Virus record (IMG/VR): IMGVR_UViG_3300036770_003397
Span: 1-26,714 of that record
Reading direction: 5' to 3' (one strand)
Length of the DNA: 26,714 nucleotides
Source: a virus
The notes under the pieces are model-generated. The model saw only the letters and a list, made by a program, of their open reading frames with translations, did no database searches and was not told where the DNA came from. Position 1 is the stretch's first letter; every line of letters begins with the position of its first letter. Both the position numbers and the translations under genes were made by a program. Positions 8,993 to 25,945 of the stretch are shown in pieces.

Positions 8993-9667
8993 ATGCGCAT
9001 GTTCCTCGCGCCCCTGGCGCTGTTTATGTCACAGCTTTGCTTGGCCGCCGACCTTATAGGCGGTGGACAACGTGTTCTGGGCGTCCATCCGCTGGACGAG
9101 ACCCGTGTGAAGATCACTGTGCAGGGTGAGAGCGGTGCGGACACCTATGTCGTCGACTGCATCGGCGCGACTTGGGGCTTCGAGGGAGGTACTCACCAGC
9201 AGGTGAAGGCCGATCAGCGATCGCAAGCGATTGCAGAGAGGGCGTGCCGAACCGTTGAGTTCAAGGCGGCACTGGTGGGCCACTCAGGCGCGTGGAAAGC
9301 CCCGGTACAACAGAAGCCTCAGACCAACAAGAAGCTGCGACCCACTTGGGTTGTTAGTGAGCCCGCCGAATCAGCCGAGGTAAGGGAGGCGCGAGCTGAG
9401 TTAAGGAAGCCCGAGAACGCCTGGGCTATCAATGCGGTTGGAGAAAAGGCCGTTCTTGCGCGCCTGAAAGACCCGGACTCAGCCTCATTCCGTGGACAAT
9501 TCGTTGGTAGATCAGGCGGAGCTTGCGGCGAAGTGAACTCCAAGAATTCCTTTGGTGGTTTTAAAGGCTACCAGCGATATATGGCATCGGGTGGAGGGCT
9601 TGTCTTCTTCGAGGAGGAAGTTGACGAAGACGAGTTTGAAAAAGCCTGGTCGAAGTTATGTAGATAA
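8993..9667 (+). CDS. Secreted 'moron' protein with signal peptide, unknown function
   Basis: The 224-residue protein begins with a Sec signal peptide: Met-Arg-Met, a hydrophobic core to about residue 17, and a likely cleavage at CLA|AD after residue 19. The mature part has a beta-rich first domain (residues 25-90) and a Pro/Lys linker. Its C-terminal domain contains ARLKDPDSASFRGQF, CGEVNSKNSFGG and FKGYQRYMA, a pattern I have seen as a C-terminal domain in phage-borne and bacterial secreted or lipoproteins of unknown role. It interrupts the conserved tail tube to chaperone order. It is bracketed by an RBS-masking hairpin and a strong terminator, the usual sign of a moron expressed on its own. 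Codon use is less GC-biased toward its 3' end. It could act in the periplasm, for example in envelope protection or superinfection exclusion; that is inference. Confidence 0.75.
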   Translation: MRMFLAPLALFMSQLCLAADLIGGGQRVLGVHPLDETRVKITVQGESGADTYVVDCIGATWGFEGGTHQQVKADQRSQAIAERACRTVEFKAALVGHSGAWKAPVQQKPQTNKKLRPTWVVSEPAESAEVREARAELRKPENAWAINAVGEKAVLARLKDPDSASFRGQFVGRSGGACGEVNSKNSFGGFKGYQRYMASGGGLVFFEEEVDEDEFEKAWSKLCR

Positions 9668-9674
9668 AACTAAG

Positions 9675-9700
9675 AAACCCGCCTCGGCGGGTTTTTTATT
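9675..9700 (+). terminator. Rho-independent terminator after the moron gene
   Basis: AAACCCGC (9675-9682), loop CTCG, GCGGGTTT (9687-9694), then a T-rich run to 9700. A strong intrinsic terminator that would separate the moron transcript from the tail chaperone gene. Confidence 0.88.
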
Positions 9701-21519: not shown

Positions 21520-21735
21520 CTAACAAACCTCGTCGAGTCGATGATATTCCGGGCGGAGAATGTCGATGCAACCTGGCGCCTGAATGTTGATCCTGGCGGC
21601 GCCAGATCGGTACTCCAGCAGGGTGATCATGATTCCGCCCTGCAACTCCTCGAGGAGCTCTTCGGCAGTCATGCCGGCGTCCGCCTTCAGGTGGATCTGC
21701 TGGCCGGTGGTACGGGTAAGCGTCAGTCCGCGCAT
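21520..21735 (-). CDS. RsmN/RsmF-like (CsrA family) post-transcriptional regulator
   Basis: A 71-residue protein with CsrA-family core segments: LTLTRTTGQQIHL, IMITLLEY, ARINIQAP and ILRPEY. Unlike classical CsrA it has an inserted helix, TAEELLEELQGG, between strands 2 and 3. This is the feature of Pseudomonas RsmN/RsmF, also 71 residues, with a matching KAD...AEEL...GGI segment. Leu6, Arg8 and Arg61 align with CsrA Leu4, Arg6 and Arg44. The equivalent of CsrA Arg7 is Thr9. It would bind GGA motifs in mRNA leaders or Rsm-type small RNAs. The start has AAGGAGG seven bases upstream. The gene is convergent with the fibre operon, two bases from its end, and lies downstream of another minus-strand gene. 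Family call is by motif; targets are unknown. Confidence 0.8.
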   Translation of the reverse strand: MRGLTLTRTTGQQIHLKADAGMTAEELLEELQGGIMITLLEYRSGAARINIQAPGCIDILRPEYHRLDEVC

Positions 21736-21808
21736 CTCATCGCCTCCTTGCGTTGGGTGATAGCAGCATAGACCGCCAATTCACGCCCGCCAGGCGCGGC
21801 TCTGAATC

Positions 21809-22012
21809 CTAGCCTGGGTGGTCTTCGAGGTTGGGAGCCAGCAGCGCGCCAGCAATGCGTCGCAACTCGGCATGGGCTGCCAGTCGCTCCTCGGCCGTCA
21901 GTGCCTCTTCGGCGAACGCTTCGGCCGCTGCCTCGGCATCGAGCACCTGCGCCGCTGCGAACTGCCGCGCCACCCGCCTAGCCAGGCCCTGGCGTACCAG
22001 CTTGTTACCCAT
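21809..22012 (-). CDS. Small helical protein, unknown function, partner of the RsmN-like gene
   Basis: The 67-residue product from ATG 22012 (a GTG at 22018 is an alternative) has a basic N-terminus, NKLVRQGLARRVARQF, and an Ala/Glu-rich helix with AEAAAEAFAEEALTAEERLA, then ELRRIAGALLAPNLEDHPG. No domain is recognised. A GAGAGG-type ribosome site lies five bases upstream. It is read in the same direction as the RsmN-like gene, 73 bases upstream of it. The two form a reverse-strand unit inside the otherwise rightward late region. The composition is GC-biased in the third codon position as in real genes here, but the short length leaves doubt. Confidence 0.5.
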   Translation of the reverse strand: MGNKLVRQGLARRVARQFAAAQVLDAEAAAEAFAEEALTAEERLAAHAELRRIAGALLAPNLEDHPG

Positions 22013-22069
22013 AACCACCTCTCAACTTGTGCCGGCGGATTGAACCCCGCCTGCCGCGCCAATTCAACC

Positions 22070-22092
22070 GCCCGCCTTGTGCGGGCTTTTTT
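22070..22092 (+). terminator. Rho-independent terminator upstream of the endolysin gene
   Basis: GCCCGC (22070-22075), loop CTTGT, GCGGGC (22081-22086) and six T. Oriented rightward, only 15 bases before the endolysin start, so the lysis genes would need antitermination or a different promoter from the fibre operon. Confidence 0.85.
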
Positions 22093-22107: not shown

Positions 22108-22623
22108 ATGACCCCAAGAGAAGTCCGCAACGGCCCGGTGGCCGAGGCGCTGTTGCTGCTGCCCGCGAAGATGACCAGCCCGCAGGCCGAGCTGATGTTG
22201 CTGGCGATCGGTTTGCAGGAGTCCGAACTCAAGCACCGCCGCCAGCACGGCAATGGCCTGGCGCGCTCACTGTGGCAGGGCGAGCAGGGCGGTGGGATGG
22301 TCGCCGGCCTGCTCGGCTTCCATAACCAGGACGTGCAGGACCTGGCGCGCGGGCTGTGCGCCGTGCGTGGCGTGCCGGCGCAGCCGCGTGCTGTCTGGGA
22401 AGCGATCGAGCACGACGACGTGCTGGCCGCCGGCCTGGCGCGGCTGCTGCTCTACACCGATCCAGCCAAGCTGCCGGGCCTCGGTGACGAAGAGGGCGCC
22501 TGGCAGCTTTACCTGCGCACCTGGCGCCCCGGCGCCTTCACCCGCGGCACGGCGGCGAAGCGCGCAGAGCTGCGGCAGAAGTGGGCGAAGAACTACGCCC
22601 AGGCGCTGGAGGTGGTGCGGTGA
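22108..22623 (+). CDS. Lysozyme-like muralytic enzyme (probable endolysin)
   Basis: ATG 22108 follows a GGAGGATTC ribosome site. The frame is open to 22027 but the terminator lies in between, so the earlier codon is unlikely. The 171-residue protein has an N-terminal helical region and LLAIGLQESELKHRRQ. Glu45 in 'QESE' is in the position of the catalytic Glu in lysozyme/transglycosylase folds, followed by the conserved-looking SLWQGEQGGGMVAG turn. The C-terminal half contains a WQLYLRTWRPG segment often found in Pseudomonas phage muramidases. It has no signal peptide or membrane segment, so it would require a holin. It overlaps the next gene by one base (TGATG). The peptidoglycan-degrading role is inferred from fold pattern and cassette position. 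Confidence 0.72.
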   Translation: MTPREVRNGPVAEALLLLPAKMTSPQAELMLLAIGLQESELKHRRQHGNGLARSLWQGEQGGGMVAGLLGFHNQDVQDLARGLCAVRGVPAQPRAVWEAIEHDDVLAAGLARLLLYTDPAKLPGLGDEEGAWQLYLRTWRPGAFTRGTAAKRAELRQKWAKNYAQALEVVR

Positions 22624-23248: not shown

Positions 23249-23264
23249 CTGTTCATTCATACAG
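23249..23264. promoter_or_regulatory. LexA-type operator upstream of the adenine methylase
   Basis: CTGTTCATTCATACAG fits CTGT-N8-ACAG with one extra flanking A/T on each side (ACTG...CAGT). It ends 15 bases before the methylase ATG, where it could block transcription. The centre is less alternating than a consensus SOS box, so binding strength is uncertain. Confidence 0.55.
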
Positions 23265-25904: not shown

Positions 25905-25945
25905 TTGACGGCTGTCTGATTCGCCAATACTGTATTTATATACAG
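25905..25945 (+). promoter_or_regulatory. SOS promoter and LexA box of umuDC
   Basis: The LexA box CTGTATTTATATACAG (25930-25945), extended by TA and T flanks, is nearly a perfect match to TACTG-(TA)5-CAGTA. A TTGACG -35 candidate lies at 25905-25910 with TACTGT (25928-25933) 17 bases after it, so the operator overlaps the -10 region. The box is 19 bases before the umuD start, and about 50 bases from the divergent SRAP pseudogene start. Confidence 0.88.

What the first reader, a model, noticed from the sequence alone, without database searches (positions are those of the whole stretch)
21520..21735. Phage-borne RsmN/RsmF-like RNA-binding regulator
The 71-residue protein has CsrA-family strands and the inserted helix between strands 2 and 3 that distinguishes Pseudomonas RsmN/RsmF. 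The conserved Arg is at position 61. It lies on the strand opposite to the tail operon. Such a protein could redirect the host Rsm regulatory network, or control phage or lysogen mRNAs with GGA motifs. Its Thr in place of CsrA Arg7 may change RNA selectivity.
Basis: partly seen in the sequence, partly recalled or inferred. Interest (0 to 1): 0.7.

Follow-up and report, generated by a model that had tools for sequence, protein, structure and literature searches.

The report
Phage-borne RsmN-type RNA-binding regulator
A Pseudomonas phage carries a small protein built like the bacterial RNA-binding regulator RsmN, in a two-gene cassette whose own messenger RNA bears the binding site such regulators recognise, which suggests the phage is wired into its host's main mRNA-control (and phage-defence) network.

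Summary
The 71-aa ORF at 21735..21520 (-) scores above Pfam's CsrA cut-off. Its best PDB sequence hit is RsmF/RsmN. An AlphaFold model (pLDDT 88) has the RsmN strand order b1-b2-helix-b3-b4-b5, and its only significant Foldseek PDB hits are the RsmN/RsmF entries. Arg61 matches RsmN Arg62; Arg9 is Thr.

(1) The gene is the second of a reverse-strand pair between tail and lysis genes. A 67-aa helical protein precedes it by 73 nt, and this pair recurs in at least seven other phage contigs. (2) Its Shine-Dalgarno is an Rsm-type site, CGC-AAGGAG-GCG. CANGGANG sits there in 13/24 RsmN-type genes, and in 30/45 more in an independent test that includes an rsmF gene, against 6/290 control genes. Translational control by host RsmA and/or itself is therefore the best reading. 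(3) RsmN-type genes are common cargo of mobile elements: prophages, next to cI, and beside umuDC/SRAP SOS genes.

RsmN-like proteins and other phage CsrAs were already known. RsmN-type phage genes with this cassette and leader site I did not find described. What the protein does to the host (for example, damping Gac/Rsm-controlled defences) is inference.

The parts
21520..21735 (-). RsmN-type CsrA-family gene, 71 aa (b1 2-9, b2 15-18, helix 24-31, b3 36-43, b4 46-53, b5 57-60; Arg48, Ile59 and Arg61 correspond to RsmN Arg49, Ile60 and Arg62)
   Evidence: key-residue numbering of RsmN from PMC3791407
21741..21752 (-). Putative Rsm-binding hairpin CGC-AAGGAG-GCG over the Shine-Dalgarno; first G of GGA at -12 from the ATG
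   Evidence: formed in the MFE and the centroid fold of the leader
21809..22012 (-). Partner gene, 67 aa (ATG at 22012; GTG alternative at 22018), predicted two-helix hairpin, function unknown; 73 nt before the RsmN-type gene
22070..22092 (+). Terminator-like hairpin plus T-run on the + strand, between the cassette and the lysis gene at 22108
   Evidence: 1 found, 0.6 expected in shuffles: weak

Best explanation
The gene encodes an RsmN/RsmF-fold, GGA-binding RNA regulator carried as an accessory ('moron'-type) gene by a temperate Pseudomonas phage. It lies in a reverse-strand two-gene cassette with a 67-aa helical partner. Its own Shine-Dalgarno sits in an ANGGAN hairpin, so its translation is held down by host RsmA (as shown for rsmF in P. 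aeruginosa) and/or by its own product. When the host's Gac system makes RsmX/Y/Z and RsmA is titrated, the phage protein would be released, would re-occupy GGA sites in host leaders or decoy RNAs, and so would act as a second, phage-supplied Rsm protein that damps or biases the host's Gac/Rsm output. That output includes antiviral and antibacterial defences in Pseudomonas. Shown here: the fold class by prediction, the cassette and its recurrence, the leader site and its enrichment, and host RsmA and RsmZ in the one host genome identified. Inferred: RNA binding by this protein, repression by RsmA or itself, expression in the lysogen, and the effect on the host.
For: Family and fold: Pfam CsrA above cut-off; RsmF/RsmN best PDB sequence hits; AlphaFold model with RsmN strand order, pLDDT 88; the only PDB Foldseek hits with E<1e-3 are 4k59, 4krw and 4kji, TM about 0.75-0.84. 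Invariant L4, R8, G34, I35, P54, R61 and E63 across 24 RsmN-type proteins. Cassette: the partner ORF is present in six other IMG/VR contigs, five of them with an RsmN-type gene 72-73 nt downstream, and a diverged pair (36-42% identical partner) in two more loci, L050 and L130. Leader: CANGGANG at -22..-4 in 13/24 RsmN-type genes vs 6/290 control genes (p=1.5e-12); independent set 30/45 (p=9e-26), including an rsmF gene (L191); still 16/25 after 60%-identity clustering (p=4e-16); second pair G-C in 12 and C-G in 4 of 18 cluster sites; pairs 1-3 Watson-Crick 30/54 vs 19.7+/-3.1 when 3' arms are permuted (4/5000 reach it). Precedent: RsmA represses rsmF translation (PMC6715622 citing Marden 2013). 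Host: RsmA and RsmZ in the P. alcaligenes genome that carries the sister prophage. Activating Gac/Rsm restricts phages, and phage-defence systems are in its regulon (preprint PMC11888443).
Against: No experiment. Two of the four basic RNA-contact residues of RsmN are absent here (Arg9->Thr9, Arg56->Gly55), so affinity or specificity may differ. The leader hairpin has only 3 bp, and the whole leader does not fold better than shuffles; in L038, L045 and L050 the ANGGAN hairpin is not in the MFE. No consensus sigma-70 promoter was found for the cassette, so expression in the lysogen is unproven. The diverged allele group L132/L134/L135 lacks CANGGANG at the SD (a GGA loop lies a little upstream). 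Control genes were called with a crude home-made caller, and sequences are related by descent.
Confidence: 0.6

Rival explanations
1. The protein mainly serves the phage itself: an autoregulated RNA-binding protein that times phage or prophage transcripts, independent of the host Rsm network.
For: RsmN-type genes lie directly downstream of cI-type repressors in other prophages (L038, L045, L178), so linkage to phage regulation is real in part of the family. The leader site would give autoregulation.
Against: In the window no other of 32 called genes has CANGGANG at its Shine-Dalgarno, and only two others have ANGGA. The cassette is on the strand opposite the late genes.
Confidence: 0.2
2. The protein is part of a mobile SOS/mutagenesis module: RsmN-type genes travel with umuD, umuC and an SRAP (YedK/HMCES-type) gene and tune translation of the error-prone polymerase.
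For: In Pseudomonas, 10 of about 23 full-length RsmN-type genes lie next to SRAP and/or umuDC, usually SRAP<- ->rsmN-umuD-umuC; more. The window has a LexA-boxed umuD and umuC 4 kb to the right.
Against: In the window the two are 4.2 kb apart on opposite strands. Most island umuD genes have their own LexA box and none has CANGGANG at the start codon; the rsmN leaders have no convincing LexA box. umuDC is common cargo of Pseudomonas mobile elements, so co-carriage may be passive.
Confidence: 0.12
3. The gene is a non-functional or selfish relic, passively carried at a recombination junction between the tail and lysis modules.
For: The RsmN part is the variable half of the cassette: against contig L135 the lysis gene is 95% and the partner 89% identical in DNA, but spacer and rsmN only 61% and 56%. 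L133 has the partner with no RsmN-type gene after it. The stem branch of the window clade is long.
Against: The frames are open in all copies, core residues R8, R61, P54 and E63 are kept, and the leader hairpin is kept in the relatives G002, L136 and L137 with changed loop bases.
Confidence: 0.08

Closest known systems
RsmN/RsmF of Pseudomonas aeruginosa (PDB 4k59, 4kji, 4krw; Morris et al. 2013, PMC3791407)
   Same: 71 aa, helix inserted between strands 2 and 3, no C-terminal helix, Arg49/Ile60/Arg62 equivalents kept, GC-AAGGAC-GC hairpin on the leader of an rsmF gene (L191)
   Different: phage-borne; 38-39% identical in the structure alignment; Arg9->Thr and Arg56->Gly; partner gene upstream; rsmF is a conserved chromosomal gene of P. 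aeruginosa
RsmM of P. aeruginosa phages, and RsmD/RsmL in prophage contexts (Sobrero & Valverde 2020, PMC7366521)
   Same: CsrA-family proteins carried by Pseudomonas phages
   Different: canonical strand order, RsmM with C-terminal extension; that survey reports RsmN as the only subfamily with a different topology and assigns the P. aeruginosa phage alleles to RsmM, not RsmN
RsmN-like proteins of other Pseudomonas (nine in Morris et al. 2013; island-borne rsmN of P. mendocina NBRC 14162 in PMC7366521)
   Same: same insert, same family
   Different: reported as chromosomal paralogues that arose by rsmA duplication; the present data show many copies on phages and islands
CsrT of Legionella ICEs (as described in PMC7366521)
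   Same: CsrA-family regulator carried by a mobile element
   Different: linked to type IV secretion genes of ICEs; topology not compared here

Membership tests
CsrA/RsmA family (Pfam PF02599) | profile score above the curated cut-off | tested here: met
   28.2 bits vs 27
CsrA/RsmA family (Pfam PF02599) | RNA-contact Arg at the end of strand 5 (CsrA Arg44) and Arg of strand 1 | tested here: met
   Arg61 and Arg8, invariant in 24 RsmN-type proteins
canonical CsrA/RsmA (NCBIfam TIGR00202) | equivalog cut-off 70.1 bits | tested here: not met
   18.7 bits
canonical CsrA/RsmA | b1-b2-b3-b4-b5 then C-terminal helix | tested here: not met
   helix predicted between b2 and b3, C-terminal end low confidence
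RsmN/RsmF type | inserted helix between strands 2 and 3, order b1-b2-a-b3-b4-b5 | tested here: met
   AlphaFold model pLDDT 88; only RsmN/RsmF in the PDB fold search at E<1e-3
RsmN/RsmF type | basic RNA surface Arg9, Arg49, Arg56, Arg62 | tested here: not met
   2 of 4 kept: Arg48 and Arg61 kept, Thr9 and Gly55 changed (residues from PMC3791407); these two columns also vary in other RsmN-type proteins, so it lowers 'same specificity', not 'RsmN fold'
RsmN/RsmF type | monophyly with P. aeruginosa RsmF | tested here: inconclusive
   window clade 100/100 but deep forks unresolved
RsmN/RsmF type | non-domain-swapped homodimer that binds ANGGAN RNA | not testable with these tools
   needs protein biochemistry
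prophage 'moron' gene | accessory gene on the strand opposite its module, variably present among related phages | tested here: met
prophage 'moron' gene | own promoter and terminator, expressed in the lysogen | tested here: inconclusive
   no consensus promoter, one + strand terminator-like site; no transcript data

The most novel reading that the evidence does not exclude
RsmN-type proteins are primarily a mobile-element family: phages and islands of Pseudomonas use them as plug-in Rsm proteins whose translation is gated by the host's RsmA through a conserved ANGGAN hairpin on the Shine-Dalgarno. They would thus sense Gac activation and counter it, including Gac/Rsm-controlled phage defence. 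P. aeruginosa RsmF would then be a domesticated member.
Probability: 0.25. Interest if true: 0.78.

Novelty: new variant of a known kind. Interest (0 to 1): 0.55.

Why it matters
Gac/Rsm is the master post-transcriptional switch of Pseudomonas and, by a 2025 preprint, coordinates its defence against phages and rivals. A phage-supplied second Rsm protein whose own message carries an Rsm site would be a direct molecular handle of the phage on that switch, testable with one reporter fusion and one deletion. It also bears on an open question: why Pseudomonas keeps several Rsm paralogues and where RsmN came from.

Tried and rejected
LexA control of the gene: no CTG-N10-CAG box with an A/T-rich core upstream in the window or the umuDC-linked island copies, though umuD and the Dam methylase do have one. 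A phage decoy sRNA: Rfam gives a sub-threshold rsmX match at 9570-9697 (25.6 vs 56 bits), but the alignment is carried mainly by the terminator and the stretch overlaps an ORF's 3' end; rejected. Phage or plasmid relatives in annotated collections: tblastn of the window protein and of three other RsmN-type proteins gives no convincing hit in INPHARED; PLSDB gives none for the window protein and only weak ones for an island type. Scanning viral contigs with the diverse alignment was not possible. Identity of the partner: no significant Pfam, PHROG or NCBIfam hit (in one search the partner was pasted in slightly altered form at its N-terminus) and no PDB fold hit at E<1e-3. A tree to place the window next to RsmF: unresolved. 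PF02599 control hits outside known csrA carriers at E<=10 are noise of the loose threshold.

Full report
WHAT IS THERE. The window is a whole 26,714-base IMG/VR record: terminase, portal, ClpP-like protease, head and tail genes, then lysis genes, a Dam-type methylase and, at the right end, umuD and the start of umuC. Over the head genes it is 77% identical to Pseudomonas phages such as Meadow and Lodos. Between the last tail gene and the first lysis gene two small genes run the other way: a 67-aa ORF (22012..21809) and, 73 nt further, the 71-aa ORF of the finding (21735..21520), with a strong Shine-Dalgarno.

THE PROTEIN. It passes Pfam's CsrA cut-off narrowly (28.2 vs 27 bits) and fails the canonical CsrA equivalog by far. 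Its best PDB sequence relatives are RsmF/RsmN of P. aeruginosa. An AlphaFold model built with 23 homologues from fetched loci (mean pLDDT 88) gives b1 2-9, b2 15-18, helix 24-31, b3 36-43, b4 46-53, b5 57-60, the order published for RsmN. Foldseek finds only RsmN/RsmF structures with E<1e-3; the best viral model is an uncultured phage protein annotated just 'CsrA'. Of the RsmN residues that contact RNA (Arg9, Arg49, Arg56, Arg62; PMC3791407) two are kept (Arg48, Arg61) and two changed (Thr9, Gly55). So it is RsmN in architecture, with an altered contact surface.

RELATIVES. The closest is 73% identical, at the same tail/lysis position and strand in a prophage of P. alcaligenes RU38D; there a HicB-like gene takes the place of the partner. 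Two more window-type copies are in L136 and L137 (66%). A profile of RsmN-type proteins separates them cleanly from canonical Csr proteins: in 399 Pseudomonas genomes about 23 full-length hits of 57-107 bits, against at most 35 bits and the second half only for the rest. By my reading of that table they occur almost only in genomes with a single canonical Csr protein; lineage may explain this. In a family-wide sample 65 of 398 genomes have one.

WHERE THEY SIT. Gene neighbourhoods fall into recurring types: (a) between or beside tail and lysis genes of prophages (window, G002, L042, L044, L050, L130, L132, L134-L137); (b) directly downstream of phage repressors (L038, L045, L178), with tandem arrays of two to three copies in L173, L175 and L176; (c) next to SRAP and umuDC in islands and P2-like prophages (L031-L034, L037, L039-L041, L048, L049); (d) conserved chromosomal places, including an rsmF gene (L191) and a group beside purC and a catalase (L185 type). 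The family is thus partly chromosomal, largely mobile.

THE PAIR. The 67-aa partner occurs in six other viral contigs (76-94% identical). Five of these have an RsmN-type gene 72-73 nt downstream; L133 has none. A 36-42%-identical partner stands before a different RsmN-type allele in L050 and L130. The partner is predicted to be a two-helix hairpin without known relatives. Against L135, DNA identity is 95% in the lysis gene and 89% in the partner but falls to 61% and 56% in spacer and rsmN: the RsmN half has been exchanged, apparently together with the tail side.

THE LEADER. Rsm targets are recognised by a GGA, ideally ANGGAN in a loop (PMC3791407). The window's start region reads CGC-AAGGAG-GCG (21752..21741), a 3-bp stem with the Shine-Dalgarno as the loop; it is in the MFE and the centroid structure. 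I noticed the same in relatives and tested it: CANGGANG at -22..-4 occurs in 13 of 24 RsmN-type genes but 6 of 290 other genes in the same loci (p=1.5e-12). On 45 genes gathered afterwards it occurs in 30 (p=9e-26), among them an rsmF gene. After clustering proteins at 60% identity it is 16 of 25 (p=4e-16), and stem pairs change together: GC/CG at the second pair, CG/AU/UA at the third. The umuDC-linked group has a variant with stems such as CGAA/UUCG, GCAA/UUGC and GGAA/UUCC around AGGA. Rows share descent, controls come from a simple gene caller, and the leader as a whole is not unusually stable. For P. aeruginosa, repression of rsmA and rsmF translation by RsmA is reported (PMC6715622 citing Marden 2013), so a function for such a site is known. 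In the window no other gene has this motif at its start.

MECHANISM. The simplest reading is that host RsmA, and perhaps the protein itself, sits on this leader. When Gac-dependent RNAs titrate RsmA, the phage protein is made and adds Rsm activity of its own. The P. alcaligenes host has RsmA and RsmZ. Gac/Rsm activation restricts phages in P. protegens, and defence systems are in the regulon (preprint PMC11888443); RsmA also controls CRISPR-Cas in Serratia (PMC8450108, abstract). So a phage-supplied Rsm protein could keep defences or rival weapons down, or simply stabilise host physiology in the lysogen. None of this is shown.

NOVELTY. RsmN-like proteins in Pseudomonas (PMC3791407) and CsrA proteins in Pseudomonas phages (PMC7366521, RsmM with canonical topology) are known. 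I found no report of RsmN-type proteins in phages, of the partner cassette, or of the leader hairpin as a family-wide feature. The library searched is incomplete.

Noticed in passing
window 23249-23264 and 25930-25945: LexA-box-like CTG-N10-CAG sites just before the Dam-type methylase gene (23280) and before umuD (25965): two phage genes likely under SOS control.
   Followed up: partly
L031-L034, L037, L039, L040 and others (Pseudomonas islands and prophages): Recurrent cassette SRAP(YedK/HMCES-type) <- -> rsmN-type - umuD - umuC, with LexA boxes before most umuD genes but not before rsmN.
   Followed up: partly
L081-L084, L087, L088, L090, L092 (other Gammaproteobacteria): A chromosomal CsrA-like family with a different insert after strand 2 (..MTVxELFxxGPI..), often near lpxB/rnhB: helix-inserted Csr proteins seem wider than Pseudomonas.
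   Followed up: no
L173, L175, L176: Tandem arrays of two to three RsmN-type genes in prophages (in L175 beside a nuclease-like gene and a repressor), most copies with their own CANGGANG leader.
   Followed up: no
window 21809-22012 versus L132, L134, L135: Partner ORF about 93% identical while the RsmN-type gene behind it is only about 36% identical: allele exchange at the cassette, RsmN allele travelling with the tail module.
   Followed up: partly
L002 1237-1710: In the closest relative a HicB-like gene replaces the 67-aa partner before the RsmN-type gene; no obvious HicA next to it.
   Followed up: no
window 9570-9697: Sub-threshold Rfam rsmX match, carried mostly by a terminator; judged chance.
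   Followed up: yes
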